DNA from: an uncultured Dehalococcoidia bacterium | Lineage (GTDB): Bacteria; Chloroflexota; Dehalococcoidia; Lucifugimonadales; G958296245 | Assembly (NCBI GenBank): GCA_958296245.1 | Contig: OY282458.1 | Location: 1,974,197 to 2,038,196, forward strand | DNA: 64,000 bases | Direction of reading: 5' to 3' | Shown here: one piece after another, positions 35,427 to 61,041 of the stretch | Numbering within the stretch: position 1 is the first letter of the stretch | Layout: every line of letters starts with the position of its first letter | Notes under the pieces: generated by a model | Told to the model about the DNA's origin: nothing | What the model saw: only the letters and a program-made list of their open reading frames with translations | The model's database searches: none | Made by a program: the position numbers and the translations under genes

Positions 35427-36558
35427 ATGTGCAGTCCCAAGTCCCAAGTCCCAAGTCCCAAGTCCCAAGTCCCAAGTCCCAAGTCCCAAGTCCCAAGTCC
35501 CAAGTCCCAAGTCCCAAGTCCCAAGTCCCAAGTCCCAAGTCCCAAGTCCCAAGTCCCAAGTCCCAAGTCCCAAGTCCCCCCACCCCGCAACCGGGCTCGA
35601 CGCCAAAGTTCCTGTGATTGGTTACCTCTGTCTGTGTCTGAGCGTATTTTTCTTCAGCTTTCTCCTCGTTGCCGCCCCGGAGACATTGCGTGTGCTGACC
35701 CGGGAAGACTCCTGGGTGGAGAACCTCACTGCGGTATGGTTTCTCCTGGCGGGCTTCCTGCTGTTCGGCACGGCCTGGATGGAGCGCAGCGTCTCCCGTC
35801 GCTGCGCCTATATTCTCGGCGGTATCGCGATGGTGTTCGCGTTTGGCGAAGAGATCAGTTGGGGGCAGCGTATCTTCGGGTTTGCGACGCCCGACTTCTT
35901 GATGTCCTTGAATGAGCAGAAGGAATTCAACGTCCACGGTATCAGGAGTGTAGTGTTCAGCATTATCTACTTGAATAGCGCAATGGTCCTGTGCGTGGCA
36001 ACCGGCGCAGCCTTCTTTTGCCGAAAAGACAGGCTTTTCGGGATTCCGTTGCCGTCAATTATGCTGATGCTGGTCTTTCTGATAATGCTTTCCTATGAGT
36101 CCGGAGTGTGGGTCAGAGATGCAACAGGAATGGGCTTCGGAGAATACCTGGTGCGCACCAGACTATTCTACGGATTTACCGTGGCTGAGGTGAAGGTGCT
36201 GCTGCTGCTCTTTTGCATCTTCGCCCTGATTTCACGGCAAGTCAAACTGGTAGTCGCTTTCGTTGCAACCCTGGCCCTCGTTCTTGCCTTCTCTTATGTG
36301 AACTATGATAATGTGTACCGCCTTAATATCATCGAACGTGGAAGTTTGTTTGAGGTGCGGGAGTACCTGTTCGGCATCGGCTGCCTTTTCTATTCTTTGG
36401 AGCTCATGCTGGCCCAGAGACGGCTGGCGGCAATTTTACCGGCCTCGTTCAGTGGCCTGAAACTGCCAGGCGGAGGGGTCCCGTTCTGGCTGATGGCCTG
36501 CTCTCTGGTAATTGCAGGCAGTATCGCGTTGATATTTTTTGAGTATTTCAGCGGTTAG
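35427..36558 (+). CDS. Candidate phase-variable membrane protein, currently out of frame with its ATG
   Basis: The paralogue at 36629 shows the layout: ATG, a short Pro-rich stretch, then the membrane domain beginning VPVIGYLCLCLSVFFFSFLL. Here the equivalent ATG (35427, GAGAGCGC upstream) is followed by 20 copies of a 7-bp repeat and runs into the wrong frame, ending at 35915 after 162 codons. The membrane domain (from about 35600, with motif FGEEISWGQRIFGFATPDFL and a late VREYLFGIGCLFYSLELMLAQ) is open to the stop at 36558. Loss of one repeat unit, or gain of two, would join them. A GTG at 35407 is already in frame with the membrane domain and could give low expression. Function is unknown; context suggests surface glycan export or lipid modification. 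Confidence 0.7.
35433..35578 (+). repeat. Heptanucleotide microsatellite (AGTCCCA)n, 20 full copies
   Basis: Perfect head-to-tail 7-bp units run from 35433 to 35572 with a partial 21st. None of the six frames meets a stop inside the tract, so it reads as PKSQVPS repeats in plus frames. Seven is not divisible by 3, so each unit gained or lost changes the downstream frame. Confidence 0.95.
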
Positions 36559-37607: not shown

Positions 37608-38804
37608 CTAAGGGCGCGGGCGAAGCGTGTAGGGACGCTCGTTTGGCTTCAGCGAAATCATGGCGGCCTCCGTGTCGAAGACAAGCTCATCCAGCAATTC
37701 GCCGTCCTGGGAAACGGTGAATGGTCTGCCAACCCAATCCTTTGGCTGGTCGAACAGGATGGTCAACGGTTGGTTGAACCTGACGTTTTCCAGACCGTCG
37801 GACAGCGTAATCGTGATGCTTTCGGTTCCGGGGCTGCCCTCGACCGGTTCAACCTTAATCTCGGCATTCTCCCTTTCCCGGACATAGAGGGTTATGTCGT
37901 TCATAGAAGCCGTCCAGAAATCACGCGCCGCGATTGATTGAACGTCTTTGCGGAATTCGTCCCAAGCGTACCATCCCCAATGCCTCTGTCCGATGCTATG
38001 GTAGGTCAATATAACCCACGCGGTCCGCACCAATGCCTCATCCAGGATAGGCGTCAACTCGTCATTGTCGTTGATACAGGCGCGGCAATCCTGAAACTCG
38101 ATGCTTTGCATCTCCAACGCTTGCAAGCCGAACCAATTGTCGGGCGCCAGCCGGGACCCTGGGATATTGTAGAACCTCTTCGGGTCTAGGGTCTGTAGTC
38201 TGCCGCTCAAAAATCCGGAAGCCTCCAAAGCCCGTTGCGTCTCTTCTTCGTGTCCGGCGCTTCTCGGATAGGCGTAGGCGACGGGCTTCATTCCCCAATC
38301 TTCCATGGTGTCGTAGTTGGCCTGGAAAGATTGGAAGGCCTCTTCGTAAGACAACTCGTCGTGGTCTACGTGATCGTGGCCATGCCCAAAATAGCTGAAC
38401 CCATTGGGGACCAGCTCCGACATCAGATAGGCGATCCGCTCATCGTCAGGCCCGCTGAATATGCGATCACCGTTAAAGGAATTTCTGGTCACTATTTCAT
38501 AGCCCATTACGAGGCCCTGCTCCATCACGTAGCTATCTATGTCCGGTTCCCTTCCGCGGATGGGCCAGTCATCGTTGGTAATCGAGATTGCGGCGGTGTG
38601 GTTGTCAAACCACTTTGCGACTGAAGCGTTCAGGGGGCCCGGGGTAGGAGTTGGGACGTCCGGCGCCTGGGACCGGCATCCCGCCGCCAGTACCAAAACG
38701 CCGAGCAGCAGCAACGCCCCCGCCATCATTGCAACGCAAGACGGCAAGGCGCGCCACAGATTGTTCAGTGCGAAGCCTTGCAGGCCGTTCTCCTTACTGT
38801 TCAA
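37608..38804 (-). CDS. Polysaccharide deacetylase-like (NodB-type) lipoprotein
   Basis: A 398-aa protein read from the TTG at 38804. The shared leader (NSKENGLQGFALNNLWR) runs into a lipoprotein signal (AGALLLLGVLVLAAGC). The catalytic region resembles carbohydrate esterase 4: AAISITNDDWP (Asp-Asp motif), GHGHDHVDHDELSYEE (His metal site) and AYAYPRSAG. A later TYHSIGQRHWGW fits the C-terminal active-site His. It probably deacetylates an amino sugar in the surface glycan. ATG 38729 is an alternative start, but then no positive charge precedes the hydrophobic segment. It lacks the KEPC module although it has the leader, and its start overlaps the upstream stop by 11 nt. Confidence 0.75.
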   Translation of the reverse strand: MNSKENGLQGFALNNLWRALPSCVAMMAGALLLLGVLVLAAGCRSQAPDVPTPTPGPLNASVAKWFDNHTAAISITNDDWPIRGREPDIDSYVMEQGLVMGYEIVTRNSFNGDRIFSGPDDERIAYLMSELVPNGFSYFGHGHDHVDHDELSYEEAFQSFQANYDTMEDWGMKPVAYAYPRSAGHEEETQRALEASGFLSGRLQTLDPKRFYNIPGSRLAPDNWFGLQALEMQSIEFQDCRACINDNDELTPILDEALVRTAWVILTYHSIGQRHWGWYAWDEFRKDVQSIAARDFWTASMNDITLYVRERENAEIKVEPVEGSPGTESITITLSDGLENVRFNQPLTILFDQPKDWVGRPFTVSQDGELLDELVFDTEAAMISLKPNERPYTLRPRP

Positions 38805-41115
38805 GGCGGATCTCCCCCTCCCAGAGGCGGTTGTAGCCGCCGGCCGCGGGGACGTACTGGCCTGTCCTGATTTCGGAGACATTATATTCCGGGAGAGGAA
38901 TTTTCACCATACATTTGCCGTCGAGTATCTCGCCGCGCCAGTCAAATCTAAAGTCCAGGTTGTCGAAGCCGTATTGCCGGCGATGGTCGGGCAGGTCGTT
39001 CACGTCAACCGGGTATAGGTGAAGGAAGAATACCGCCTCCGTGTCGGCGCGGGCGCACGGCTCCTTGACGTAGATGAGGTGGTTTCCGATGAGATGCACG
39101 TCAAAGCTGGAGCGGATTGACGGCGGGCGGTCTCCGACCAGCCTTGCCAGATAATCGCTCGCTGCTATAGCTTCAACCCTGACTGGCGGGAGTGCATCGT
39201 GGGGCAGCACAACGGCGTCCACGCACAGCCCCGTCTCCGTTTGCGCCCAGGCGTTGGCGGCCAGTCCATCCGCTGCGCCAACCCAAGACCACGCTATCCA
39301 CTCGTTCGGCGCGCAATTCCTGACGAACGCCTGCGCCAGCCGGCCGTCCACGATCAGCCCGATGCCATCCGACTGATGGTCGAAGTGGGGTTCAATCCTC
39401 TCCCAAGTCCTGGCGACGGTATTTTCATCTGCCGGCAGATCGATGGGCCGTAGTTGGAGTCTTAGTGGTGAACCTTCAAAGCTCCTAGGGTCGGCAAAAT
39501 GAGTTATCCCGAATTCTCGATGGAGAGCATCATATCCGTCTCTAGCCAGCTTTCTCGCGTGGAGATAGTCATAGGAGTTGACTAGGCCATCCAAGTTCAC
39601 CACTGGAAAGCGCGAGAAGTACCCGATGCCGCCGGCTTCATACGACCCGACCACGCTGTCCTCGGGAAGCACGCGGTTCATAAGCTGCGTACCCCCATAA
39701 ACAGCTTCAGTCCATTCGGTCCATGAGTCGTCAGTTCTGGTTGAGACACTAATCGCTTCAACACGCTGAAATGGCTCGGTGAAATCGGCCTTGATAAACA
39801 GGAAGGCCGCGCCCGCAAGGACGATGCCCAAACTCAGGATGTTGGTCGCGTGCTGCGACTTCGGCCCGATGAACCGGCGAATGAAGTAAATGGCGACGTA
39901 ACATCGTACGGGAACAATCAGCGCCGTCATCAGGTACGCCGGGACAAAATACCAAGACCAAGGACCCAAGGAAGGGTGAATCGTGAGAACAGTCTGTGCG
40001 AATTTGGCCAGATGGCCGGCCGCCAAACCGAACATGCCCACCAGGAAGGCCAGCAGAAGCCAATCTTTCCGACTCCGGGAGCGGCGGGCGAACCACCAGA
40101 CCAGCAGCAAATAGGCGCAAACCTCCAGCGCAACCAGCAGCCCATCGTTTAAGACAGGAATCTGCAATATGTCCTGGAAGTTCTGCGCCAAGCTGTATCC
40201 ACCTTCCTGCTCCCACCTGAGCTGCGACCAGAAATTCTTGGTCGCGCCGCTCACCGGCGCGATGCCGCCGAACACGAGCCAGTTGTAGGCGAAATACACC
40301 AGGATGCCTGCGCCGGCGGCGAGAAACGGGACGACCGCCTTCACGGAGCGCGCGGAACGAGCCCACTCTCCGAGTGACGCGCTGGGCGCTCGTTCCTGCC
40401 GCGACCATTCCATAAGCAGCAACGCCGCCGTGGCGGCCAGCGATATGGCGATGTATTCCAGGCGCACCCAAGGCAGGGCGAAGGTGACCGCGGCCAACGG
40501 CCACTGCCACCGCGCCGGGCTTCGGGCAAAGAGGCAAGCGGTCAGAATGAACAGGCCCAACATGAACAGCGCCGCCGCCGCTTCCATTCCTTGAATCAAG
40601 GACCGGTTCTGGTAGAACATCGGCAGCGCGGCGAACATCAGATACCACGGCTGGCGCGCCAGCCGGGCGGCCGCGGCGACGAGGGCTACGCCGCCGGCGA
40701 TGAGCATGATCTCGAACGCCTTGATGCCGAACAGCGCGGCTTCCTTGTCGAATACCCAGTAGAACGGCGTAATCAGCAGCAGCCAGAGGGGGTGATATCC
40801 GTTGGTGCGCGTGATGCCGCCGTCGAAGGTCGAGAACTTCCCCTCAGTCAGGTTGCTGGCGATCTGGAAGTAGTAGAAGGCGTCATCGTGCATGTGGGAG
40901 ATAAGGTTGATGAGGTCGAAGCGGGCGAGCATGTACCAGGCGAACCCGGCGCCGTATGCCAGGACGCCAGCGACGAATAGGGCGAACAGCCCGTGGCGCA
41001 GCCTGGAGGAAGGAATTACCCCCCCCCCTCCAGTACTCATGTTCTGATAACGCGCCGCCAAGGCGCTCCACAGATTCAGCGCGAAGCCTCGCACGGCGTT
41101 CCCGTTACTGCTCAA
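38794..41115 (-). CDS. GT-C membrane glycosyltransferase (LFALFV type) with KEPC module, leader in frame
   Basis: A 773-aa protein and the reference member of four related genes (also 51616, 56127, 58479). It has a leader SSNGNAVRGFALNLWS, a G10 tract coding Gly, a first helix [22 protein letters not shown], an external loop HDDAFYYFQIASNL with [17 protein letters not shown], many helices, an external segment ([33 protein letters not shown]) and a C-terminal KEPC module. The DD pair in the first loop is the likely catalytic or metal site of GT-C enzymes. The TTG at 41115 overlaps the upstream stop by 11 nt. An ATG inside the leader (MSTGGGG) is a second possible start, just before the G tract. 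Confidence 0.82.
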   Translation of the reverse strand: MSSNGNAVRGFALNLWSALAARYQNMSTGGGGVIPSSRLRHGLFALFVAGVLAYGAGFAWYMLARFDLINLISHMHDDAFYYFQIASNLTEGKFSTFDGGITRTNGYHPLWLLLITPFYWVFDKEAALFGIKAFEIMLIAGGVALVAAAARLARQPWYLMFAALPMFYQNRSLIQGMEAAAALFMLGLFILTACLFARSPARWQWPLAAVTFALPWVRLEYIAISLAATAALLLMEWSRQERAPSASLGEWARSARSVKAVVPFLAAGAGILVYFAYNWLVFGGIAPVSGATKNFWSQLRWEQEGGYSLAQNFQDILQIPVLNDGLLVALEVCAYLLLVWWFARRSRSRKDWLLLAFLVGMFGLAAGHLAKFAQTVLTIHPSLGPWSWYFVPAYLMTALIVPVRCYVAIYFIRRFIGPKSQHATNILSLGIVLAGAAFLFIKADFTEPFQRVEAISVSTRTDDSWTEWTEAVYGGTQLMNRVLPEDSVVGSYEAGGIGYFSRFPVVNLDGLVNSYDYLHARKLARDGYDALHREFGITHFADPRSFEGSPLRLQLRPIDLPADENTVARTWERIEPHFDHQSDGIGLIVDGRLAQAFVRNCAPNEWIAWSWVGAADGLAANAWAQTETGLCVDAVVLPHDALPPVRVEAIAASDYLARLVGDRPPSIRSSFDVHLIGNHLIYVKEPCARADTEAVFFLHLYPVDVNDLPDHRRQYGFDNLDFRFDWRGEILDGKCMVKIPLPEYNVSEIRTGQYVPAAGGYNRLWEGEIRLEQ
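41019..41028 (-). repeat. Poly-G tract (10) in glycosyltransferase leader, in frame
   Basis: Ten G on the coding strand: ACT GGA then GGG GGG GGG GTA. At this length the leader start and the membrane protein share a frame. Confidence 0.85.
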
Positions 41116-44444: not shown

Positions 44445-44592
44445 CTACTCAGCAAGCCGAAACTCCCCCTCCCAGAGGTGATCGAAACCGCCGGCCAGGG
44501 GCACGAACTGGCCGGCGCTGATGCGGGCAATATCATACTCCGGGAGAGCAATCGCCGCCATACATCGCCCATCGAGTATCACGCCGCGCTCG
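44445..44592 (-). pseudogene. Remnant of a KEPC module (last ~47 residues only)
   Basis: In frame and intact to its TAG, this fragment reads [36 protein letters not shown] and DHLWEGEFRLAE. It is nearly identical in DNA to the end of the 41105-43150 gene but has no glycosyltransferase attached; the upstream side joins the 3' end of the NCS2 permease gene. The ~300-bp gap between the permease and the proteinase gene holds this remnant plus the proteinase promoter. It marks a deletion or insertion breakpoint in the array. Confidence 0.85.
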
Positions 44593-47443: not shown

Positions 47444-49465
47444 TCATTTGCCTTCTCTCCAAGGGAACTCCACCTTCCAGACCTGCCCCTGGCCGGGGAC
47501 GTACTGGCCGGTGCTGACGCGGAGAATATCATACTCCGGGAGAGCCGCCGCCGCCATACATCTCCCGTCGAGTATCTCGCCGCGCCCGTCGAAGCGGAAG
47601 TCAAGGTTGTCGAAGCCGTATTGCCGGCGATGGTCGGGAAGGTCGTTCACGTCAACCGGGTGCAGGTGGAGGAAGAACGCCGCCTCCGTGTCGGCTGGGG
47701 CGCACGGCTCCTTGACGTAGGTCAGCGTGTTTTCGCGGAGATAGACGTCGAAGGTGGAGCGAATTACGGGTTCGCCGGACACGAACGCCTTGTTGGCAGC
47801 GCGGGCCGCCGGTTCGACAGACTCTTTGACGTTCTCAATCAGAAAGATATGGAAATATCCGTCAGCAAGGATACGTTCAACTGAAACTTGCTCGCCCAGC
47901 AGCTCAAACACCTCCCCTATTTGATTGAGATCATAGACCAAGAAGATTCTATTTGGGGGGTGCGAGATGACTAAATCGGCCATCTCACGGAGACACGGAT
48001 CGGCGGATTCCGTACACCAGTAGGTCCCATAGTAGTAATTGGCCGGTCTTCCCTCTCTTCCTTGATAGAACCGGATGGCCGGGACCGTCCCATAGACTGC
48101 GAAAACCATGTCATCTTCCCGCACCCGTTCTTTCAGTACGGCAAGAACGGATTTGATGTTCTCAGGTGTCTTGTACGGACTGTCCCGCCGCATGGCGCCC
48201 ACCCCGGCAAGCGCTATTACGCCGACGGCCGCGACGGCCAGCGCCGGAGCCAGCCCCCCCCGGCGCGTCAGCCCGGACAGACTATCCGCCATCCAATGGA
48301 TGGATACGCCGGCGGCCAGAAAGATGACCGGCCCCAGATAGAGGTTTTGGTGAATGCCCCCAAGGGGATATATTCCCAGCACGGCGGCGCCGACGGAAAC
48401 TGCAATGCAAAACGAAAGTAAAACTGCGATGACACTGCCTGAAAACGTTCCTTGAAACTTTCTGAGGAACGCTGCGGCCAATAGGATCGCGAATGCGGCA
48501 AGCGCCGCTGTCGCCACGACCCCCGGCAAATGATACGTCAATAAACGCCAAATCCCATCAATCGAAAACTCGAAGATTGCAGGCGCATCGAATCCTCCCT
48601 GATAGTAATACGCCGATAGATAGTCATCCGTGGCGAAGTCCGGTTGAGACCACTGATAGCGCACAGTGACCGCGTAGCTTATGCCGCACCCCGCTAGAAA
48701 GCACGCTGCCGGCCAGAGCAAGACGATGCGCTGCCGGAGCCAGTTACGAACCCGGCCTAAGTACGAATTACACTCCGGCGCCGCCAAGGTCCGGGGGGAG
48801 GGTAGAACCATAGCGGCGCACATTACGGCGGCGCCGAAAAGGACCAAACCGTACTGGAGCAGCGGCCCGAGGAACAGCGCAACGCAGAGCAGGGCCTTCC
48901 TGCCGTCCCGCAGATACCACAGCAGCCCCGCTATCATCAGCGCGGCCAGCAGCGCGTCAATGGAGTATTCCCGCGCATCCTGGGCGTGCTCTATGGCGGC
49001 AATCGAAAGAGTCGCCAACAGGGCCGCCAGAAACGCAGCCCATCGGGCAACCCCGAGGCGCGGCAGCAAAAATAACATCACGGCAACGGTCAGAACGCTG
49101 GCCGCCGCCGGCAGAACGCGGACGCTGAAGGGCGTGCTCTCGACTTTCTGGGCCGCCCACAGCGCCAGGGGATACAGGATGGGCGAGGAGTTACAGCAAC
49201 GGGTACCTAATATGACTTCCGGGAGCGCGCCCCTGGAGATATTGGCCGCCGCCGCTTCGTCATGCCGTAGAGATTGCTCCGGCAGGTCATAGAAGCGCAG
49301 ACCCGCCGCCACTACGAGCAGGCACACGAACGCCGCAAGGGCCAGCCATTCCAGACGGGAGGAAGGAAATACCCCTCCCCTCGCGCCTATGTTCTGATAG
49401 CGCACTGTCAGGGCGCGCCGCATATTCAGCGCGAGGTCCTGCAGGCCGCGGCGGTTACTGCTCAA
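47444..49465 (-). CDS. GT-C (GT39/ArnT-like) membrane glycosyltransferase with KEPC module
   Basis: A 673-aa relative of the 17431/19520/21501 trio, sharing [21 protein letters not shown] and [11 protein letters not shown], with loop [20 protein letters not shown]. The middle region ([20 protein letters not shown]) matches the 21501 gene almost exactly, whereas the following segment is different, which indicates mosaicism. Its KEPC module has an atypical end ([19 protein letters not shown]) and so lacks the usual ribosome-site codons. The TTG at 49465 overlaps the upstream stop by 11 nt, and its leader ([25 protein letters not shown]) is in frame. Confidence 0.82.
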
Positions 49466-51626
49466 GGCGTATCTCCTCCTCCCAGAAGTGGCGGAAACCG
49501 CCTTCCACTGGCACGTACTGGCCGGTGCTGATGCGGGCAATAGCATACTCAGGGAGATCCACCGCCGCCATGCATTTGCCGTCAAGTATCACGCCGCGCT
49601 CGTAGAAATTGAAGTCCAGGTTGTCGAAGCCGTGCTGCCGGCGGTGGTCGGGCAGGTCGTTCACGTCAACCGGGTACAGGGCCAGGAAGAACCACGCCTC
49701 CGTGTCGGCGCGGGCGCACGGCTCCTTGACGTAGGTCAGCGTGTTTTCGCTGAGATATACGTCGAAGGTGGAGCGGATCGCCGGCTCGCTGTCTCTGATC
49801 AGTCTTGCCATATAATCGCCCACCGGCTCCGTTCCACCGGCTATCCGCAAGTCGTGTCCGGCGAAGCTCGCCACGACCCAGTCATGGTCGTCGGAGTCGA
49901 AGGGCATCCACAGATCGGGTCCGACCTTCACGGCGTACTGACCTCGGTCGAGGGCTTCAGCTTCGCTGGAGGCCGCAGGATGCGCTGTAAAGTTGACGCC
50001 GCGCTCCATCAGGTATCCGGGCGGCGGCTGGCGATCGTGGGCGATTGCGCGCTGGTGGTTGGGTGTTGTGACAGGATTGCGCGCCACCGTCGCATCGGTC
50101 AAGCCGAAGATGTCGATGACTTTCAGGTCAGGAAGGTAATAGAACCGTATGCCGAGCTTTGCGCCTGCCATCAGCGCGTCATCAGGAATCACTCCCCGCT
50201 CCATATTCTCGTAGGGCTGCCATCGGCGTAGCTGGCGGTTGGCGAACTCGCGGTGTTCCGCGAATCGTGAAGCGACATCCTGCTCAATAGACTGACGGCG
50301 CAGGTCGTTGGAGATAGCGGCCAGCGCCGACATCCCCGGCGCGGCCAGCAGCCAGCGGGCGTTGCGCTCGTCGAGCTCTATGTGAAGTCTCCAGATTCGT
50401 TTGTCAATCCTGGCGCCCTCGATCAACAGTTCTCCCTGTATGGCGCCGCAGTAGAAGATGACGGGGATGAACAGGATGAGCGCGCAAGCCCTCGCTCCCG
50501 GCAGCCGGAGTCGGTGGGAGTGGGGTATGCGCCGCCAGTCGAAGGCGGCGATCCGCGAGCCGATGCAGACGGTCCCCACAGCGGCCGGCAGCGCCAGCAG
50601 CGGCCAGTAGAAGTCCAGCGGGCGATATTCAAAGTGGTCGCCGCCAATCCGCATCACGTATGCCATGTGGACAGCGATTAGCAGCAGGACCAGAGCATAG
50701 ATCCCGTCGCGGCTCTCCCGCCACCGATGCCGCAGAGCAACCCACGCCAGGGGAATCAGCAGGTACAGCCCCGTCTCCAGCGCCGCCGACCACAGGTAGC
50801 GAAAGCCCGACTCGTACCACGGGCGAACGTGCTTGGCGTAGTAGGTGTTGGGCAGCCACTCGCCGTAGTAGGCGAAGCGGAACAGGAAGTGGGCCGCCAC
50901 TACGATGACGAAGGGCGCCGCCAGGTACGCCAATTCGCGCCAGTCCACCCGCAGCCCCTTGGCGTCGGCCATCCGCTGCGCCGCGAACCAGCCGAAGCAG
51001 CACACCGCAATCAGCGGCCCTTCCGGTCGGGTCAGGGCAGCCCCGATCAGGCTCGCTGACGCCGCCAGCAGGCCCGCTCGCCCATCTCGGTATAGGCTCA
51101 GGCAGACGACGGCCACTACGATGAAGAAGGTGAACTGCCGCGTTTCCAGCCCGCCGCCCGAGGTCCACACCGCGAAGGTCGCGCTGCTGCACACCAACCC
51201 CAAGGCCATCCAGCCGACCAGTCCCCGGTTTCGCAGCGAGGGCAGGCGCGCTATCCACCACAGCATCGCGCCGACGGTCCCGGCGGTGAAGGCCACCGAC
51301 AGCCACGGCGCCGCGTCCTCCGGGGCCGCGCCCAGCGCCCGCCAGATGGCGGCCAGCTCCAGCACCCACAGGAAGTTGGAGTAGCCCTCCACCCGCTCGC
51401 CGGGGTTGAAGACCAGGCCGTGGCCCTCCAGCAGGTTGCGGACGTAGCGGAAGCTGATGAAGGCGTCGTCGGTCAGGAACCACGACACCGAGGCCAGCCA
51501 GGCCAACAGCGCCAGCCAGGGCAGGCAGGCCAGTATGAGACTGAGGGATGTGCCCTTTAGCGGCCCTGTCAGGGCGCGCCGCATATTCAGCGCGAAGCCC
51601 CGCAGGCCGTTACCGTTACTGTTCAA
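49455..51626 (-). CDS. GT-C membrane glycosyltransferase (AftB/ZomB-like loop) with KEPC module
   Basis: A 723-aa protein. After leader [19 protein letters not shown] comes a helix and the signature [21 protein letters not shown] followed by [14 protein letters not shown], known from mycobacterial arabinofuranosyltransferase AftB-like proteins and their bacterial relatives. Further helices, an external region ([28 protein letters not shown]) and the KEPC module follow. It is closely similar to the 53991 gene. The TTG at 51626 overlaps the upstream stop by 11 nt. The leader has no poly-G tract. The module ends EEEIRLEQ. Confidence 0.82.
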
Positions 51627-53886
51627 GGCGTATCTCCCCCTCCCAGAGGTGGTTGTAGCCGCCGGGCACGGGCACGTACTGGCCGGTGCTGACACGGGCA
51701 ATATCATACTCAGGGAGAGGGATTTTCACTAGGCATTTGCCTTCTGATATCGTGCCGCGCTCGTAGAAATTGAAGTCCAGGTTGTCGAAGCCGTGCCGCT
51801 TGCGATGGTCGGGGAGGTCGTTCACGTCAACAGGGTGCAGGTGGAGGAAGAACCACGCCTCCACGTCGGCGCGGGCGCACGGCTCCCTGACGTAGGTCAG
51901 CGTGTTTTCGCTGAGATATACGTCCCAGTCGGAGCGGATTGCCGGCGGGCTCTCTCCGACCAGTCTTGCCAAGTAATCGCCGGCCTGCATTGTTTCAACC
52001 CTAAAAGGCGGGAGCGCATTGTGGGGCAGCACAACGGCGTCCACGCACAGCCCCGTCCCCGTTTGCGTCCAGGCTCTGACAGCCGGTTCATCCGCCGCGC
52101 CAGTCCATGACCACACTGCCAGCTTGTCCGGCGCGCAATCTCTGACGAACGCCTGCGCCATCCGGCCGTCCACAATCACCCCTATGCCATCCGACCGGTG
52201 GTCGAAGTGCGGCTCCATCCGTTCCCAGAACCAGTCGGAACGATTGGTCCCGCCCGATGACGTCTCCGGCGGCTCGGCGCTCAGGAGCGTGAATTGGCGT
52301 CTGTAGTGGGACGGCGAGCCTTCGAACAGTATTGCGCCCCCGCTCGGGCGCGCCAAGCGTTGGAGAACCTGGTCTCCCTTTCGGGCCACGTTGGCGAAGT
52401 GGGTAATTCCGTAGCGCTGGTAGAACGCGGTGTCGGTTCCTTCCTTTCGGGCGCGCAGGTAGTCGTAGGAGTTGACCAGACCGTCCAGGTTCACCACCGG
52501 AAAGCGCGAGAAGTACCCGATGACTCCGGCATCCCACGACCCGACCACGCTGTCCTCGGGCAACACGCGGTCCGTAACCTGCACACCCATATGAGAAGTA
52601 ACCTCCCATTCGCGGCCGGTCCACTCGCTGAGACGGTCAACATATCGGAACGGCCCGGCGAAGTCCGCCTTCGTAAGCAGGAAAACCGCGCCAACAACGA
52701 CGATGCCCACGCTCACAATGTTGGCTGCCCGGGGCGACCTCGGCCCGATGAAACGGCGGATGAAGTGGATGGCGACATAGCACCTTACGGGAGTAGTGAG
52801 CGCCGCCAGCATGTACGCCGGGACGAAGTACCAGCTATCACTCCCCCAGTAGGGATCCACGGTGAGAGCGGTCTGAGCGAACTTGGCGAGGTGGCCGACC
52901 GCCAAGCCGAACACGCACACCAGGAAGGCCAGCAGCAGCCAGTCGTCTCGGCTCCGAGAGCGGCGGGCGGACCACCAGACCAGAACGACGTAGGCGCAGA
53001 CCTCCAGCGCGGCCAGCAGCTCGTAGTCGAAGACATGAATCTGCAAGACATCCCGGAAGTTCTGAACGAAGCTGTACCCGCCTTCCTCCTCCCATAGCCA
53101 CTGCGACCACATCTGCTTGGTCGCGCCACTCACCGGCGTCACGCCCCCGAACACCAGCCCGTTGTATGCGAAGTACACCAGGATGCCGCCCACCGCGCCC
53201 AGCAGCGGAACCACGGCGTCCAGCGCAGATAGGGTGCCAAGCCTTGCCCCCTCTCCCTCGACGGGTGAGGGTGATTCCCGCCTCGACCACTCGATGAGAC
53301 CGAGCGCGGCGGTGACCGCCAACGATATGGCGATGTACTCCAGGCGCACCCAAGGCAGGGCAAAGGCGGCGGCGGCCAGAGGCCACCTCCAACGCCCACG
53401 GTCCCGCGCGTAGAGCATCACGGCCAAGAAGAACAGCCCCAGCATGAACAGCGCGGACGCCGCTTCCAAACCATGAAATAAGCCGTGGTACCGGTAGAGC
53501 AGCGGCAGCAGGGCGAACAGCAGAATCCAGGGCAGGCGCGCCAGCCGGGCGGCCACGGCGACCAGCGCCGCCCCGCCTGCGATGAGCATGACCTCGAACG
53601 CCTTGATGCCGAACAGCGCCGCTTCCTTGTCGAACACCCAGTAGAAGGGCGTGATCAGCAGCAGCCAGATGGGATGGTAGCCGTTCGTCCGGGTGATGCC
53701 GCCGTCGAAGGTGGAGAGGTTCCCCGAGGCGAGGTTATAAGCTATCTGGAAGTAATAGAAGGAGTCGTCGCCGTTGACGTCGCGGATGAGGTTGACAAAG
53801 TCGAAGCGGGCCAGCATGTACCAGGCGAACCCGGCGCCGTAGGCCAAGACGCCGGCGACGAATAGGGCGAACAGCCCGTTGCGCAA
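51616..53886 (-). CDS. GT-C membrane glycosyltransferase (LFALFV type) with KEPC module, leader out of frame
   Basis: At least 756 aa from the TTG at 53886 ([16 protein letters not shown]). The leader TTG at 54001 would add about 38 residues as in the 38794 gene, but an 11-G tract leaves it one base out of frame. The TTG at 53886 has no purine-rich ribosome site nearby (AATTCCTTCCTCCCGG precedes it), so expression from the leader may be off in this state. Loop [31 protein letters not shown] and the external [16 protein letters not shown] match the type. The module ends WEGEIRLEQ. Confidence 0.8.
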
Positions 53887-53903
53887 CCGGGAGGAAGGAA
53901 TTA

Positions 53904-53914
53904 CCCCCCCCCCC
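53904..53914 (-). repeat. Poly-G tract (11) in glycosyltransferase leader, out of frame
   Basis: Eleven G between ACA and TAATTCC on the coding strand. Ten G would connect leader and protein as in the 38794 gene. Confidence 0.85.
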
Positions 53915-53990
53915 TGTACTTATGTTCTGAAAGCGCACTGTCAGGGCGCACCACAGATTGTTCAGCGTGAAGCCCTGCAGGCCGCGGCGG

Positions 53991-54024
53991 TTACTGCTCA
54001 AGGCGTATCTCCCCCTCCCAGAGG
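53991..54024 (-). promoter_or_regulatory. Representative cassette junction: ribosome site and TTG start inside the 3' end of a gene
   Basis: The last codons of the upstream module, reading W-E-G-E-I-R-L-E-Q-stop, are TGGGAGGGGGAGATACGCCT then TGAGCAGTAA. They contain GGGAGGGGGAG and, 7 nt later, a TTG followed by AGC AGT AAC that opens the conserved leader of the next gene. The same arrangement occurs with TTG at 19530, 21511, 38804, 41115, 49465, 51626, 54001, 58489 and 60870. Confidence 0.6.
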
Positions 54025-56111
54025 TGGTTGAAACCGCCTTCCACGGGGACGTACTGGCCGGTGCTGACGCGGGCAATAGCATACTCAGGGAGAGCAATCG
54101 CCGCCATGCATTTACCGTCGAATATCACGCCGCGCCCGTCGAAGCTAAAGTCGAGGTTGTCGAAGCCGTACTGCCTGCGATGGCCGGGCAGGTCGTTCAG
54201 GTCAACAGGGTCTAGGTGCAGAAAGAACCTCGCCTCTATATCGGCGGGGGCGCACGGCTCCTTGACGTAGGTCAGCGTGTTGTCGCTGAGATATACGTCA
54301 AAGGTGGAGCGAATCACCGGCTCGCTGTCTCTGATCAGTCTTGCCATATAATCGCCCACCGGCTCCGTTCCACCGGCTATCCGCAAGTCGTGTGCGGCGA
54401 AACTTGCCACGACCCAGTCATGGTCGAAGGAGTCGAAGGGCATCCACAGGCCGGGTCCGACCTTCACGGCGTACTGACCTCGGCGGAGGGCCTGGGCTTC
54501 GCTGGAGGCCGCAGCATGCACTGTAAAGTTGACGCCGCGCTCCATCAGGTATCCGGGCGGCGGCTGGCGATCGTGGGCGATTCCGCGCTGGTGGTTGGGT
54601 TTTGTGACAGGATTGCGCGCCACCGCCGCATCGGTCAAGCCGAAGATGTCGATGACTTTCAGATCCGGAAGATAATAGAACCTGCCGAGACCTCCGCCTG
54701 CTGTCAGCGCGTCATCGGGAATAACTCCCCGCTCCATATTCTCGTAGGGCTGCCACCAGCGCATCTGCTCGTTGGCGAACTCGCGGTGTTCCGCGAATGG
54801 TGAAGCGACATCCTGCTCAACAGACTGACGGCGCAGGTCGTTGGAGATGGCGGTCAACACAGGCATCCCCGGCGCTGCCAGCAGCCAGCCTGCATTGCCC
54901 TCGTCGATCTCTATGTGAAGTCTCAGGATGCGCTCGTCAACCTTGGCGCCCTCGAAGAATAGCGCTGCCTGTATGGCGCCGCAGTAGAAGATGACGGGGA
55001 TGAACAGGATGAGCGCGCAGGTCCTTGCTCCCGGCAGCCGGAGTCGGTGGGAGTGGGGTATGCGCCGCCAATCGAAGGCGGCGATCCGCGAGCCGATGCA
55101 GACGATCCCCTCGGCTGCCGGCAGCGCCAGCAGCGGCCAGTAGAAGTCCAGCGGGCGATATTCAAAGTGGTCGCCGCCAATCCGCATCACGTATGCCATG
55201 TGGACAGCGATTAGCAGCAGGACCAGAGCATAGATCCCGTCGCGGGTCTCTCGCCACCGATGCCGCAGCGCAACCCACGCCAGGGGAATCAGCAGGTACA
55301 GCCCCGTCTCCAGCGCCGCCGACCACAGGTAGCGAAAGCCCGACTCGTACCACGGGCGGACGTGCTTGGCGTAGTAGGTGTTGGGCAGCCACTCGCCGTA
55401 GTAGGCGAAGCGGAACAGGAAGTGGGCCGCCACTACGATGACGAAGGGCGCCGCCAAGTACGCCAGTCCGCGCCAGTCCACCCGCATCCCCTTGGCGTCG
55501 GCCATCCGCTGCGCCGCGAACCAGCCGAAGCAGCACACCGCAATCAGCGGCCCTTCCGGTCGGGTCAGGGCCGCACCGATCAGGCTGAACGACGCCGCCA
55601 GCAGGCCCGCTCGCCCATCTCGGTATAGGCTCAGGCAGACGACGGCCACTACGATGAAGAAGGTGAACTGCCGCGTTTCCAGCCCGCCGCCCGAGGTCCA
55701 CACGGCGAAAGTCGCGCTGCTGCACACCAACCCCAAGGCCATCCAGCCGACCAATCCTCTGTTTCGCAGCGAGGGCAGGCGTGCTATCCACCACAGCATC
55801 GCGCCGACGGTCCCGGCGGTGAAGGCCACCGACAGCCACGGCGCCGCGTCCTCCGGGGCAACGCCCAGCGCCCGCCAGATGGCGGCCAGCTCCAGCACCC
55901 ACAGGAAGTTGGAGTAGCCTTCCACCCGCTCGCCGGGGTTGAAGACCAGGCCGTGGCCCTCCAGCAGGTTGCGGACGTAGCGGAAGCTGATGAAGGCGTC
56001 GTCGGTCAGGAACCACGACACCGAGGCCAGCCAACCCAACAGCGCCAGCCAGGGCAGGCAGACCAGTATGAGAGCAATGGCCGGTCTTGCGTCTCGACCG
56101 ATCCTTGTCAT
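53991..56111 (-). CDS. GT-C membrane glycosyltransferase (AftB/ZomB-like loop) with KEPC module
   Basis: A 706-aa close paralogue of the 49455 gene with the same [21 protein letters not shown] signature; differences cluster in the external region and module. It starts at ATG 56111 after GAGAGGCACGG, 15 nt beyond the upstream stop, so it is the one large gene of the right-hand array without the shared leader. Its short unique N-terminus is TRIGRDARPAIALILVCLPW. With the 56127 gene it forms a two-gene unit that resembles the 51616-49455 unit. Confidence 0.85.
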   Translation of the reverse strand: MTRIGRDARPAIALILVCLPWLALLGWLASVSWFLTDDAFISFRYVRNLLEGHGLVFNPGERVEGYSNFLWVLELAAIWRALGVAPEDAAPWLSVAFTAGTVGAMLWWIARLPSLRNRGLVGWMALGLVCSSATFAVWTSGGGLETRQFTFFIVVAVVCLSLYRDGRAGLLAASFSLIGAALTRPEGPLIAVCCFGWFAAQRMADAKGMRVDWRGLAYLAAPFVIVVAAHFLFRFAYYGEWLPNTYYAKHVRPWYESGFRYLWSAALETGLYLLIPLAWVALRHRWRETRDGIYALVLLLIAVHMAYVMRIGGDHFEYRPLDFYWPLLALPAAEGIVCIGSRIAAFDWRRIPHSHRLRLPGARTCALILFIPVIFYCGAIQAALFFEGAKVDERILRLHIEIDEGNAGWLLAAPGMPVLTAISNDLRRQSVEQDVASPFAEHREFANEQMRWWQPYENMERGVIPDDALTAGGGLGRFYYLPDLKVIDIFGLTDAAVARNPVTKPNHQRGIAHDRQPPPGYLMERGVNFTVHAAASSEAQALRRGQYAVKVGPGLWMPFDSFDHDWVVASFAAHDLRIAGGTEPVGDYMARLIRDSEPVIRSTFDVYLSDNTLTYVKEPCAPADIEARFFLHLDPVDLNDLPGHRRQYGFDNLDFSFDGRGVIFDGKCMAAIALPEYAIARVSTGQYVPVEGGFNHLWEGEIRLEQ

Positions 56112-56126: not shown

Positions 56127-58442
56127 TTACTCAGCAAGCCGGAACTCCCCCTCCCAGAAGTGGCGGAAACCGCCTTCCACTGGCACGTACTGGCCGGTGC
56201 TGACACGGGCAATAGCATACTCAGGGAGATCCGCCGCCGCCATACATCTCCCGTCAAATATCAAGCCGCGCTGATCGAAGTGGAAGTCCAGGTTGTCGAA
56301 GCCGTGCCGCTTGCGATAGTCGGGCAGGTCGTTCACGTCAACAGGGTGCAGGTGGAGGAAGAACCACGCCTCCACGTCGGCGCGGGCGCACGGCTCCCTG
56401 ACGTAGGTCAGCGTGTTGTCGCTGAGATATACGTCGAAGGTGGAGCGGATCGCCGGCGGGCTCTCTCCGACCAGTCTTGCCAAGTAATCGCCGGCCTGCA
56501 TTGTTTCAACCCTAAAAGGCGGGAGCGCATTGTGGGGCAGCACAACGGCGTCCACACACAGCCCCGTCTTCGTTTGCGTCCAGGCTCTGACAGCCGGTTC
56601 ATCCGCCGCGCCAGTCCATGACCACACTGCCAGCTTGTCCGGCGCGCAATCTCTGGCGAACGCCTGCGCCATCCGTCCGTCCACTATCAGCCCTATGCCA
56701 TCCGACCGGTGGTCGAAGTGCGGCTCCATCCGCTGCCAGAACCAGTCGGAACGACTGGTCCCGCCCGATGACGTCTCCGGCGGCTCGGCGAGCCAGATCC
56801 TGAATTGGAGCTCACCATGGCGAGAGTGGTGATACGGCGGCCCTTCGAACAGCATCGCGTCCACGTCCTGAATGGCGGGCCAGACGTCGGCGAAGTGGGT
56901 AACCCCGTAACGCCGGTGGAACGTGGCGGTGTCGCTTCCTTCCCTTTGAGCGTAGTCGTAGGAGTTGACCAGACCGTCTAGGTTCACCACCGGAAAGCGC
57001 GAGAAGTACCCGATGACGCCAGCGGACCACGACCCTACCACGCTGCCATCGGGCAGCGCATGGTCCATAACCTGCACACCCATATGAGAGGTAACCTCCC
57101 ATTCGTGGCTGGTTGACTCGCTTGCCCGGTCAGCATACCGGAATGGCCCCATGAAGTCCGCATTCGCAAGCAGGAAGTACGCTCCGACAACCACGATGCC
57201 CACGCTCACAATGTTGGCTGTCCATGGCCACCTCGATCCGATGAAACGGCGGATGAAGTGGATAGCGATATAGCACCTTACGGGAATGATGAGCGCCATC
57301 ATCAGGTACGCCGGGACGAAATACCAGACATAGCCCCCATAGACAGGGTGTATGGTGAGGACGGTCTGCGCGAACTTGGCGAGGTGGCCAACCGCCAAGC
57401 CGAACACGCAGACCAGAAAGGCAAACAGCAGCCAGTCCTTCCGGTTCTTGGAACGGCGGGCGAGCCACCAGACCAGAACGACGTAGGCGCAGACCTCCAG
57501 CGCGGCCAGCAGCTCGTAGTCGAAGACCGGAATCTGCAAGACGTCCCGGAAGTTCTGAACGAAGCTGTACCCGCCTTCCTCTTCCCATAGCCACTGCGAC
57601 CCCATCTGCTTGAGCGCCCCGCTCACCGGCGTGACGCCCCCGAACACCAGCCCGTTGTATGCGAAGTACACCAGGATGCCGCCGACCGCGCCCAGCAGTG
57701 GCGCAACGGCGTCGAGCGCGATCATGGAACGGACCCGCTCTCGCCAGGACGCGCCGACCTCTCGCGGCGGCCGTGACCACTCGATGAGACCAAGCGCGGC
57801 AGTGACCGCCAGCGATATGGCGATGTACTCCAGGCGCACCCAGGGCAGGGCAAAGGCGACGGCGGCAAGCGGCCACTTCCACCGCGCCGGGTCCCGCGCG
57901 TAGAGCATCACGGCCAAGAAGAACAGCCCCAGCATGAACAGCGCGGACGCCGCTTCCAGTCCAAGAAATAAGCCGTGGTACTGGTAGAGCAGCGGCAGCA
58001 GGGCGAACAGCAGAATCCAGGGCAGGCGCGCCAGCCGGGCGGCCACGACGACCAGCGCCGCCCCGCCTGCGATGAGCATGATCTCGAACGCCTTGATGCC
58101 GAACAAGGCCGCTTCCTTGTCGAACACCCAGTAGAACGGCGTGATGAGCAGCAGCCAGAGGGGATGGTAGCCGTTCGTCCGGGTGATGCCGCCGTCGAAG
58201 GTGGAGAGGTTCCCCGAGGCCAGGTTATAAGCTATCTGGAAGTAATAGAAGGAGTCGTCGCCGTTGACGTCGCGGATGAGGTTGATAAGGTCGAAGCGGG
58301 CCAGCATGTACCAGGCGAACCCGGCGCCGTAGGCCAAGACGCCGGCGACGAATAGGGCGAACAGCCCGTTGCGCAACCGGGAGGAAGGAATTACCCCCTC
58401 CCTGTACTTATGTTCTGATAGCGCGCGGTCAGGGCGCGCCAC
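56127..58442 (-). CDS. GT-C membrane glycosyltransferase (LFALFV type) with KEPC module
   Basis: 771 aa read from the GTG at 58442 ([25 protein letters not shown]), which reads the leader DNA in a different frame from its relatives. From the leader TTG at 58489 translation would stop after 33 codons at GGG TAA, because the G tract is short and interrupted (GGGAGGGGG). Loop [30 protein letters not shown] and external [16 protein letters not shown] define the type. The KEPC module ends WEGEFRLAE. The GTG lacks a clear ribosome site. Confidence 0.78.
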   Translation of the reverse strand: MARPDRALSEHKYREGVIPSSRLRNGLFALFVAGVLAYGAGFAWYMLARFDLINLIRDVNGDDSFYYFQIAYNLASGNLSTFDGGITRTNGYHPLWLLLITPFYWVFDKEAALFGIKAFEIMLIAGGAALVVVAARLARLPWILLFALLPLLYQYHGLFLGLEAASALFMLGLFFLAVMLYARDPARWKWPLAAVAFALPWVRLEYIAISLAVTAALGLIEWSRPPREVGASWRERVRSMIALDAVAPLLGAVGGILVYFAYNGLVFGGVTPVSGALKQMGSQWLWEEEGGYSFVQNFRDVLQIPVFDYELLAALEVCAYVVLVWWLARRSKNRKDWLLFAFLVCVFGLAVGHLAKFAQTVLTIHPVYGGYVWYFVPAYLMMALIIPVRCYIAIHFIRRFIGSRWPWTANIVSVGIVVVGAYFLLANADFMGPFRYADRASESTSHEWEVTSHMGVQVMDHALPDGSVVGSWSAGVIGYFSRFPVVNLDGLVNSYDYAQREGSDTATFHRRYGVTHFADVWPAIQDVDAMLFEGPPYHHSRHGELQFRIWLAEPPETSSGGTSRSDWFWQRMEPHFDHRSDGIGLIVDGRMAQAFARDCAPDKLAVWSWTGAADEPAVRAWTQTKTGLCVDAVVLPHNALPPFRVETMQAGDYLARLVGESPPAIRSTFDVYLSDNTLTYVREPCARADVEAWFFLHLHPVDVNDLPDYRKRHGFDNLDFHFDQRGLIFDGRCMAAADLPEYAIARVSTGQYVPVEGGFRHFWEGEFRLAE

Positions 58443-58478
58443 AGATCGTTCAGCGTGAAGCCTCGCAGGCCGCGGCGG

Positions 58479-60761
58479 TTACTGCTCAAGCCGGAACTCT
58501 CCCTCCCAGAAGTGGTTGTAGCCGCCTTCCACAGGCACGTACTGGCCGGTAAAGATGCGGGCAATATCATACTCAGGGAGAGTCGCCGCCGCCATACATC
58601 TCCCATCGAATATCACGCCGCGCCCGTCGAAACCGAAGTCCAAGTTATCGAAGCCGTGCCGCTTGCGATAGTCGGGAAGGTCGTTCACGTCAACCGGGTA
58701 CAGGGCGAGGAAGAACAACGCCCCCGTGTCGGCGGGGGCGCAAGGCTCCTTCACGTAGATGAGCCTGTTCTCGATGAGATATACGTCGAACTCGGAGCGG
58801 ATTGCCGGCTCGCGGTCGCCGACCAGATCTGCCAAGTAATCGCCGGCCGTCATCGCATCCGCCCGCACCGGAGGGGAGGCGTCGCGGGGCAGCACGAGCG
58901 CGTCCACGCACAGCCCCGTCTTCGTTTGCGTCCAGGCTTTGGGGAACGGTTCAGCCGCGCCAGTCCATGACCACACTGCCAGCTCGTCCGGCGCGCAATC
59001 TCTGGCGAACGCCTGCGCCATCCGTCCGTCCACGACCACTCCGATGTCGCCCGATTGATAGTCGAAGTGCGGCTCCATCCGTTCCCAGAACCAGACGTCG
59101 GCGTCTCTCATTGGGGAGTAGGACCAGAGTTTGAACCGTAGTCTGCTGACATCAGGGTCGGGATGTGGTGCGCCCTCGAACATGACGTTGTCCAAGGCGA
59201 ATCCACGCTTTACATTCAAATCGCCTCCAGCGACGTTCGCGAACAAGGTAATCCCGTAATGCTGATAGAACGCGTACACGGCCTCGGTTATTTCCTTGCG
59301 GGCCTGCCAGTAAGGGTAGCGATTGCGGGCACGATAGTAATCCCAGGAATTGACCAGGCCGTCTAGGTTCACTACCGGAAAACGCGAGAAGTATCCGATG
59401 CTGCCGGCGTCCCACGACCCGACCACGCTGTCCTCGGGCAGCACACGGTCCATAACTCGAACGCCCATATGAGAATTAACCTCAAATTCGCGGCTGGTTG
59501 ACTCGCTTGCCGAGTCGGCATACCGGAACGGTCCTGTGAAGTCCGCCTTTGTAAGCAGAAAGGCTGCTCCGACAACGACGATGCCCACGCTCACAATGTT
59601 GGCTGCCAGGGGCGACCTCGGTCCGATGAAACGGCGGATGAAATGGATGGCTACGTAGCACCTTACGGGAATAAGAAGCGTCATCAGCAGATACGCCGGG
59701 ACGAAGTACCAAGCCTGTTTCCCCCAGGAGGGATGCACGGTGAGAACGGTCTGAGCGAACTTGGCGAGGTGGCCGGCCGCCAGGCCGAACACGCACACGA
59801 GGAAGGCCAACAGCAGCCAGTCTGTGCGGTCCCTGGAACGGCGGACGAACCACCAGACCAGAACGGCGTAAGCGCATATCTCCAGCGCGGCCAGCAGCTC
59901 GTAGTCGAACGCGGGGATCTGCAAGACGTCCCGGAAGTTCTGAACGAAGCTGTATCCGCCTTCGTTATCCCACCGGGCTTGCGACCACATCTGCTTGGTT
60001 GCGCCGCTCACCGGCATCACGCCTCCGAACACCAGCCCGTTGTATGCGAAGTACACCAGGATGCCTGCGCCGGCGGCGAGAAACGGGACGGCCGCCTTGA
60101 CGTAGAGCGCGGAACGAACCCGCTCTCCGAGCGGCGCGCCGGGCGCCCGCTCCCGCCTCGACCACTCGATGAGACCGAGCGCGGCAGTGACCGCCAGCGA
60201 TATGGCGATGTACTCCAGGCGCACCCAAGGCAGGGCAAAGGCGACCGCGGCCAGCGGCCACTTCCACCGCGCCGGGTCCCGCGCGTAGAGCATCACGGCC
60301 AAGAAGAACAGCCCCAGCATGAACAGCGCGGCGGCCGCTTCCAGTCCCAGGAATAGGTTGCGCTGCTGGTACAGCATCGGCAGCGCGGCGAACAGCAGAA
60401 TCCAGGGCAGCCGCGCCAGCCGGGCGGCCACGACGACCAGGGCAACCCCGCCGGCGATGAGCATGATCTCGAACGCCTTGATGCCGAACAAGGCCGCTTC
60501 CTTGTCGAACACCCAGTAGAAGGGCGTAATCAGCAGCAGCCAGAGGGGATGGTAACCGTTCGTCCGGGTGATGCCGCCGTCGAAGGTAGAGAAGTTCCCC
60601 GAGGCCAGGTTATATGCAATCTGGAAGTAATAGAAGGAGTCGTCGCGGTTTACGTCCCGGATGAGGTTGACAAAGTCGAAGCGGGCCAGCATGTACCAAG
60701 CAAACCCGGCGCCGTATGCCAGGACGCCGGCGACGAACAGAGCGAACAGCCCGTTGCGCAA
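58479..60761 (-). CDS. GT-C membrane glycosyltransferase (LFALFV type) with KEPC module, leader out of frame
   Basis: At least 760 aa from the TTG at 60761. The leader TTG at 60870 is one base out of frame because of a 9-G tract. Loop [36 protein letters not shown] and [18 protein letters not shown] define the type. The external region differs from its paralogues (WQARKEITEAVYAFYQHYGI). The module ends WEGEFRLEQ and supplies the next junction. It is the most upstream intact glycosyltransferase of the right-hand array. Confidence 0.8.
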   Translation of the reverse strand: MRNGLFALFVAGVLAYGAGFAWYMLARFDFVNLIRDVNRDDSFYYFQIAYNLASGNFSTFDGGITRTNGYHPLWLLLITPFYWVFDKEAALFGIKAFEIMLIAGGVALVVVAARLARLPWILLFAALPMLYQQRNLFLGLEAAAALFMLGLFFLAVMLYARDPARWKWPLAAVAFALPWVRLEYIAISLAVTAALGLIEWSRRERAPGAPLGERVRSALYVKAAVPFLAAGAGILVYFAYNGLVFGGVMPVSGATKQMWSQARWDNEGGYSFVQNFRDVLQIPAFDYELLAALEICAYAVLVWWFVRRSRDRTDWLLLAFLVCVFGLAAGHLAKFAQTVLTVHPSWGKQAWYFVPAYLLMTLLIPVRCYVAIHFIRRFIGPRSPLAANIVSVGIVVVGAAFLLTKADFTGPFRYADSASESTSREFEVNSHMGVRVMDRVLPEDSVVGSWDAGSIGYFSRFPVVNLDGLVNSWDYYRARNRYPYWQARKEITEAVYAFYQHYGITLFANVAGGDLNVKRGFALDNVMFEGAPHPDPDVSRLRFKLWSYSPMRDADVWFWERMEPHFDYQSGDIGVVVDGRMAQAFARDCAPDELAVWSWTGAAEPFPKAWTQTKTGLCVDALVLPRDASPPVRADAMTAGDYLADLVGDREPAIRSEFDVYLIENRLIYVKEPCAPADTGALFFLALYPVDVNDLPDYRKRHGFDNLDFGFDGRGVIFDGRCMAAATLPEYDIARIFTGQYVPVEGGYNHFWEGEFRLEQ

Positions 60762-60778: not shown

Positions 60779-60787
60779 CCCCCCCCC
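60779..60787 (-). repeat. Poly-G tract (9) in glycosyltransferase leader, out of frame
   Basis: Nine G following AC on the coding strand. Eight or eleven G would connect the leader TTG at 60870 with the protein. Confidence 0.85.
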
Positions 60788-60859
60788 GTACTTATGTTCT
60801 GATAGCGCGCGGTCAGGGCGCGCCAAAGATTCAGCGCGAATCCCCGCAGGCCGCGGCGG

Positions 60860-61041
60860 TTACTGTTCAAGCCGTATCTCTCCCTCCCAGAAGTGGTTGT
60901 AGCCGCCTTCCACAGGCACGTACTGGCCGGTGGTGAAGTGGGTAAATCTCATACTCAGGGAGAGCCGCCGCCAGGCATTCGCCGTTGAATATCACGCCGC
61001 GCCCGCGGCGAGTGCGATGAGCGCCGGAAATGCGGAGCGTC
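60860..61041 (-). pseudogene. Collapsed glycosyltransferase gene: leader-proximal scrap joined to KEPC module remnant
   Basis: The 3' part reads as the module end (ARGVIFNGEC) but is frameshifted near 60930-60950, where GTGGTGAAGTGGGTAAATC replaces the usual GTGCTGATGCGGGCAATATC. The 5' part (61012-61039) matches the DNA for RSAFPALIAL at the start of the 41105-43150 gene. So a gene of that type lost nearly everything between. It still supplies GAGAGATACGGCTTGAACAG as the junction for the downstream gene. Confidence 0.75.

What the first reader, a model, noticed from the sequence alone, without database searches (positions are those of the whole stretch)
53991..54024. Cassette junctions: the module's last codons double as ribosome site and start codon for the next gene
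At ten junctions the terminal coding sequence (W-E-G-E-I/F-R-L-x-x-stop) contains GGGAGGGGGAG and, at about 7-nt spacing, a TTG that begins a conserved leader peptide ((N/S)SN..GL.GF.LN.WRAL..RYQN). Start and stop overlap by 11 nt. Any gene placed downstream of any module is thus automatically translated. The lipoprotein deacetylase at 37608, whose signal peptide gains its positive charge only if the leader is translated, supports leader translation.
Basis: partly seen in the sequence, partly recalled or inferred. Interest (0 to 1): 0.7.

Follow-up and report, generated by a model that had tools for sequence, protein, structure and literature searches.

The report
Overlapping gene junctions with slippery G-runs
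In bacteria that probably live in marine sponges, the end of one surface-protein gene carries the ribosome site and start codon of the next, and a run of repeated G's just after that start seems to switch the next gene on or off by changing its reading frame.

Summary
Twelve gene ends in the window carry a G-rich ribosome site 7 nt before a TTG that overlaps the stop by 11 nt; nine continue into one conserved leader peptide. The leader is genuinely coding: selection acts in one frame, it has no stops, indels are multiples of three, the start is kept (TTG, once ATG), and it recurs in five other bacterial groups. It is fused in frame to glycosyltransferase-like membrane proteins, lipoproteins, release factor RF1 and a radical-SAM enzyme.

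"Any downstream gene is automatically translated" is not supported. A G-run often lies between leader and body. With runs under 9 G, leader and body share a frame at 33 of 41 junctions; with 9-18 G, at 7 of 25. Near-identical copies differ almost only in run length (11/9, 16/12). A fourth gene type carries a heptamer repeat, poly-C or poly-G at the matching site in different genomes. I read this as phase variation added to translational coupling, on a block (Ig-like C-terminal domain plus leader) shared by unrelated bodies. Switching itself is inferred. Each part is known; the combination and its cross-phylum spread appear new.

The parts
53991..54338 (-). Tail domain (about 112 aa, Ig/FN3-like) at the C-terminus of gene 53991-56111; same domain ends the other array genes
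   Evidence: alignment A1/A4; AlphaFold2 pLDDT 92
54009..54019 (-). Ribosome-site-like GGGAGGGGGAG inside the last codons of the tail
   Evidence: pairing -13.1 kcal/mol to own 16S 3' end
53991..54001 (-). 11-nt overlap: TTG start of leader (54001) to TAA stop of upstream gene
53922..54001 (-). Conserved leader ([26 protein letters not shown]..)
53904..53914 (-). 11-G run between leader and type A body; leader and body in different frames
51616..53903 (-).
60779..60870 (-). Leader (TTG 60870) plus 9-G run (60779-60787), out of frame with body 58479-60761
58394..58489 (-). Leader (TTG 58489) plus GGGAGGGGG, out of frame with body 56127-58442
41019..41115 (-). Leader (TTG 41115) plus 10-G run (41019-41028), in frame with body 38794-41115 (773 codons)
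49372..49465 (-). Leader (TTG 49465) plus GGGGAGGGG, in frame with type B gene 47444-49465 (673 codons)
49455..51626 (-). Type C gene beginning with the leader (TTG 51626), in frame, no G-run
37608..38804 (-). Deacetylase-like lipoprotein beginning with the leader (TTG 38804), in frame
19520..21511 (-). Type B gene beginning with the leader (TTG 21511), in frame; 42-nt deletion relative to its copy removes the run
17431..19530 (-). Type B gene with leader (TTG 19530), in frame, but interrupted by an in-frame stop near 18631
23429..23437 (-). 9-G run in the leader-like N-terminus of the type B gene 21501-23501
56127..56137 (-). Same site and TTG overlap without the conserved leader (also at 44445-44455 and 17431-17441)
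35433..35578 (+). Perfect heptamer repeat (AGTCCCA)x20.9 at the 5' end of a type D GT-C-like gene (body frame about 35584-36558)

Best explanation
The junction is a composite expression block. The last codons of a swappable Ig/FN3-like C-terminal domain carry a strong ribosome site and an overlapping start (TTG, rarely ATG) for a conserved, translated N-terminal leader of about 28 codons. Ribosomes finishing one gene, or newly loading at the site, begin the leader of the next. Between leader and body many copies hold a G-run that changes length by slipped-strand mispairing; its length decides whether the leader frame continues into the body (ON) or ends at an early stop (OFF). The block thus gives coupled but phase-variable expression, mostly of surface proteins. 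Shown here: the overlap, leader coding, run-length variation between near-identical copies, frame statistics, and sharing of tail and leader across unrelated bodies and phyla. Inferred: use of the TTG in vivo, coupling, slippage in living populations, and ON/OFF phenotype.
For: Leader is coding: frame-specific pN/pS and absence of stops, 3n indels, start kept as TTG/ATG. Strong ribosome sites. In frame at 33/41 junctions with <9 G and 7/25 with >=9 G, Fisher p = 6e-5. Near-identical copies differ almost only in run length: 11 vs 9 and 16 vs 12 at 99.7% identity, 11 vs 10 at 95.7%. 7 of the genome's 22 runs of >=9 G sit at its leaders. Out-of-frame bodies lack a good internal ribosome site (-3.4 and -4.5 kcal/mol). 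Type D genes have a heptamer, poly-C or poly-G repeat at one homologous 5' position in different genomes. Tails are as alike between body types (0.819) as within (0.825), bodies not (0.446 vs 0.819).
Against: No within-population length variation could be examined, and the genomes are metagenome assemblies. GGAGG codons are not junction-specific. Some out-of-frame leaders have short or no runs (8 of 41). Of 144 tail ends only 53 have a long overlapping frame. Body frame was taken as the longest open frame, which is ambiguous for a few loci such as L147/L148.
Confidence: 0.68

Rival explanations
1. Plain translational coupling: the overlap always drives the next gene, and the out-of-frame cases are assembly errors in homopolymers.
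For: Overlap and strong site; five of nine leaders in the window read straight into the gene. Long homopolymers are error-prone in long-read assemblies (general knowledge).
Against: Run-length differences of 2 and 4 between 99.7% identical copies in one genome; 9-G runs inside genes resembling PDH-E1-beta, MutL and an FAD enzyme of the same assembly stay in frame; 58489 is out of frame without a long run; repeats other than poly-G occupy the homologous site in type D genes.
Confidence: 0.15
2. The block is only a recombination seam: tail and leader are similar because homologous recombination or gene conversion keeps copies alike, and the junction has no special role in translation.
For: Tail identity does not follow body type; arrays of tandem paralogues; GGAGG also in internal tail copies.
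Against: Does not predict frame-specific constraint on the leader, the ATG substitution, in-frame fusion to RF1, radical-SAM and lipoprotein genes, or leaders on genes without an upstream tail. Shared seam and translation role are not exclusive.
Confidence: 0.1
3. Programmed slippage of RNA polymerase or ribosome on the G-run: a fraction of products is always in frame, so out-of-frame genes are expressed at a set low level and not switched.
For: Runs of 9 or more identical bases are known slippage substrates (general knowledge). Out-of-frame bodies remain open and uncorrupted (mostly 488-500 codons within the scanned stretch).
Against: Does not by itself explain genomic run-length differences between near-identical copies. 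No conserved run length was found.
Confidence: 0.05

Closest known systems
Poly-G phase-variable (contingency) genes of Campylobacter, Helicobacter and Neisseria (PMC6321876, PMC2823697, PMC5084427)
   Same: Homopolymer of 9 or more near the 5' end of the coding region, mixed in- and out-of-frame alleles, surface-related genes
   Different: Here the run follows a conserved leader shared by unrelated genes and starting inside the previous gene; found in uncultured bacteria of several phyla; switching not demonstrated
Translational coupling by overlapping stop and start codons (PMC6728339, PMC10666635)
   Same: Start and stop overlap, ribosome site inside the upstream gene, co-directed pairs
   Different: Typical overlaps are ATGA or TGATG (4 and 1 nt); here 11 nt with TTG, the overlap is part of a shared protein domain, and a conserved leader peptide follows
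FN3/Ig-like and other repeat domains of sponge symbionts (e.g. PMC8163846)
   Same: Beta-sandwich domain on probable surface proteins of symbiont MAGs, likely shared horizontally
   Different: The tail matches no Pfam or NCBIfam family in the proteins scanned and is only generally Ig/FN3-like (best Z 7.9); it is tied to the leader of the next gene

Membership tests
Simple-sequence-repeat phase-variable (contingency) locus | Homopolymer or short tandem repeat above the slippage threshold (PMC6321876 uses >=7 G/C) inside the reading frame or 5' region | tested here: met
   runs of 9-18 G at 25 of 66 leaders; heptamer x20.9
Simple-sequence-repeat phase-variable (contingency) locus | Repeat length varies between otherwise near-identical sequences | tested here: met
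   between paralogous copies in one genome; between cells or hosts not testable here
Simple-sequence-repeat phase-variable (contingency) locus | Length change moves the gene in and out of frame | tested here: met
   7/25 in frame with >=9 G against 33/41 with <9 G
Simple-sequence-repeat phase-variable (contingency) locus | Reversible ON/OFF expression in a population | not testable with these tools
   needs reads, RNA or protein data
Translationally coupled overlapping gene pair | Start codon of the downstream gene overlaps the upstream stop, same strand | tested here: met
   11-nt overlap at all twelve junctions
Translationally coupled overlapping gene pair | Ribosome site inside the upstream gene | tested here: met
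   but codons not junction-specific
Translationally coupled overlapping gene pair | Downstream translation depends on upstream translation | not testable with these tools
   needs a two-gene reporter with a premature upstream stop
Fibronectin type III / Ig-like domain (for the tail) | Sequence match to a curated FN3/Ig family | tested here: inconclusive
   no Pfam match to the tail in the proteins scanned; fold comparison Z up to 7.9, a common-arrangement level

The most novel reading that the evidence does not exclude
A single portable block (C-terminal surface domain, overlapping start, leader and slippage run) has spread horizontally among symbionts of several phyla and acts as a plug-in, phase-variable expression adapter for whatever gene follows it, giving unrelated symbionts a shared way to vary their surfaces.
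Probability: 0.45. Interest if true: 0.82.

Novelty: new variant of a known kind. Interest (0 to 1): 0.64.

Why it matters
Phase variation is best described in animal and human pathogens. In the paper library searched, one paper held both 'Chloroflexota' and 'phase variation' (on myxobacterial PilY1), and none of the ten holding 'sponge', 'symbiont' and 'phase variation' has a title or abstract about phase variation in sponge symbionts. If confirmed, uncultured symbionts from several phyla switch surface proteins stochastically with a common, transferable module. That bears on how dense symbiont communities persist in an animal that filters and eats bacteria. It also makes a testable claim about junction design: one block serves as C-terminus, ribosome site, start codon and switch.

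Tried and rejected
Selection on the ribosome-site codons: internal copies of the domain carry GGAGG about as often as terminal ones, so this is not evidence for coupling. Leader as untranslated spacer: rejected by frame-specific substitution and 3n indels. Known family for the tail: no Pfam or NCBIfam match covering it in the proteins scanned; PDB sequence search gave only chance-level hits (best E 0.13); fold comparison gave general Ig/FN3-like sandwiches, best Z 7.9. Frame break in gene 17431-19530 as a further slippage site: rejected, the two copies differ only by 3n indels, so the break is an in-frame stop. The 15 other runs of 9 or more G in the genome are scattered, some intergenic and some inside other genes, so poly-G alone is not diagnostic. 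No paper found that lists the OY282 MAG accessions.

Full report
Observation. In the 64-kb window, on the minus strand, twelve ORF ends share ...WEGE(I/F)RLxx-stop (with small variations) containing GGGAGGGGGAG or a one-mismatch form, with a TTG 7 nt beyond it and an 11-nt overlap with the stop. The motif count is well above shuffled expectation (14 against 2.9, largest shuffle 8). The organism's 16S ends GGATCACCTCCTTT, and predicted pairing to the twelve sites is -11.2 to -15.7 kcal/mol against -4.4 +/- 2.8 for random TTGs.

What the genes are. The array contains large membrane proteins of at least three unrelated body types, weakly resembling PMT/GT-C glycosyltransferases or an arabinofuranosyltransferase model. 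They end in the same domain of about 112 aa. AlphaFold2 gives a confident beta-sandwich (pLDDT 92), generally Ig/FN3-like but without a strong match. Within the window, tail DNA identity is 0.825 between genes of one body type and 0.819 between genes of different types, while body identity falls from 0.819 to 0.446. The tail therefore travels independently of the body.

Distribution. The tail domain is in this genome (33 copies) and in 4 of 58 same-order relatives (19-31 copies each), and in 7 of 400 genomes sampled across the phylum, this one included. A scan of genomes of 84,980 species gave 304 relatives; the 74 best loci lie in MAGs labelled Dehalococcoidia, Bryobacterales, Entotheonella, Latescibacteria, Pseudomonadales, Binatia and Caldilineaceae. 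That set resembles lineages reported from sponge metagenomes (e.g. PMC12586988), so a sponge origin is likely, but the record titles do not state it. A sequence-only model of the junction (R1) matches 16 of 18 tail-bearing genomes. Tail DNA is 67-84% identical across phyla, which suggests horizontal transfer; no tree test was made.

The leader is coding. Over 37 copies, after removing the part shared with the upstream gene, pN/pS is 0.55 (bootstrap 0.47-0.64) in the leader frame and 1.19 and 0.87 in the other two; stops occur in 0, 36 and 14 copies respectively. Leader indels are 3 nt or multiples. The start is TTG in 36 of 37 and ATG in L077. In L025 the stop lies six bases further on (17-nt overlap), but the TTG and leader are kept. 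The leader's second half also begins genes with no tail immediately upstream, with a clear ATG and AAGGAGAG site in Entotheonella (L172, L173); Caldilineaceae copies (L174) have an ATG-started form. It is fused in frame to glucose/sorbosone dehydrogenase-cytochrome c lipoproteins (L011, L028, L155), deacetylase-like lipoproteins (L025, L039, window 37608), RF1 (L058) and a radical-SAM/SPASM enzyme (L166).

The missed feature: the G-run. After the leader many copies have a G-run. Over 66 distinct leaders, those with fewer than 9 G are in frame with the body in 33 of 41 cases, those with 9-18 G in 7 of 25 (Fisher p = 6e-5), near the one third expected if frame were random. The 66 are related sequences, so the p-value is indicative. 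The sister junction at 41115 has 10 G and reads through 773 codons. Internal starts of the out-of-frame bodies have weak ribosome sites (-3.4 at 53886 and 60761, -4.5 at 58442), so those alleles look OFF.

Is the run-length difference real? Entotheonella copies L147/L148 are 99.7% identical over 798 bp with 11 against 9 G; two Caldilineaceae copies are 99.7% identical with 16 against 12; L172/L173 are 95.7% identical with 11 against 10. In the window's genome 22 runs of 9 or more G exist and 7 are at its leaders. Runs of 9 G inside ORFs resembling PDH-E1-beta, MutL and an FAD enzyme stay in frame (identified by eye), which argues against a general homopolymer error. Most tellingly, the type D gene downstream of 35427 has (AGTCCCA)x20.9 where its relatives in other genomes have poly-C of 10-17 (L186, L182, L050, L064, L091) or leader plus poly-G up to 18 (L174). 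Other relatives have no repeat there. Three repeat types at one homologous position point to selection for an unstable tract.

Terminal and internal copies of the tail use GGAGG-forming codons about equally (90/111 and 13/16). The ribosome site may therefore be a pre-existing property of W-E-G-E coding that was exploited, not created, for coupling. Tail ends also occur without a coupled gene: of 144 distinct ends, 53 have an overlapping start with at least 150 open codons, 42 have only a later start, and 49 have neither within 150 nt.

Mechanism by strength of support. Shown: overlap, coding leader, strong site, run-length variation, frame statistics, module sharing. From established knowledge: overlapping pairs are translationally coupled in tested cases (PMC6728339), and G-runs of this length cause ON/OFF switching in Campylobacter (PMC6321876). 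Not shown: TTG use, coupling, slippage in the living population, phenotype.

Novelty. Coupling and poly-G phase variation are both known. A shared tail-start-leader-run block used by unrelated genes in several phyla is, as far as the searches here go, not described; the library searched is partial.

Noticed in passing
window 35433-35578: Perfect (AGTCCCA)x20.9 between ATG 35427 and the body of a GT-C-like gene; the ATG frame and body frame differ, while a GTG at 35407 overlapping the upstream stop is in the body frame. The only multi-base repeat of its kind in all loci fetched.
   Followed up: yes
window 4471-7692: A 1073-aa GT-C-like protein on the plus strand with about four tandem copies of the same tail domain (spacing 381-393 nt).
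   Followed up: partly
window 17431-19530: Type B gene split by an in-frame stop near 18631 although 95% identical to its intact neighbour.
   Followed up: partly
L205 (own genome, 993.5-996.5 kb): Array of direct repeats (ATCCGCGACCTAGCGGTCGCGGCCCCATTGAAG..) with unique spacers, looks like a CRISPR array.
   Followed up: no
L203 (about 360.8 kb) and L209 (about 2049.6 kb) of the own genome: Runs of 17 and 18 G away from any leader; the first inside a long ORF, the second outside any ORF of 90 codons or more.
   Followed up: no
window 26791-27436: Four tandem copies of a 162-bp unit (96% matches).
   Followed up: no
L058 3338: Tail domain gene directly upstream of and overlapping release factor RF1, with a short leader in frame.
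   Followed up: partly
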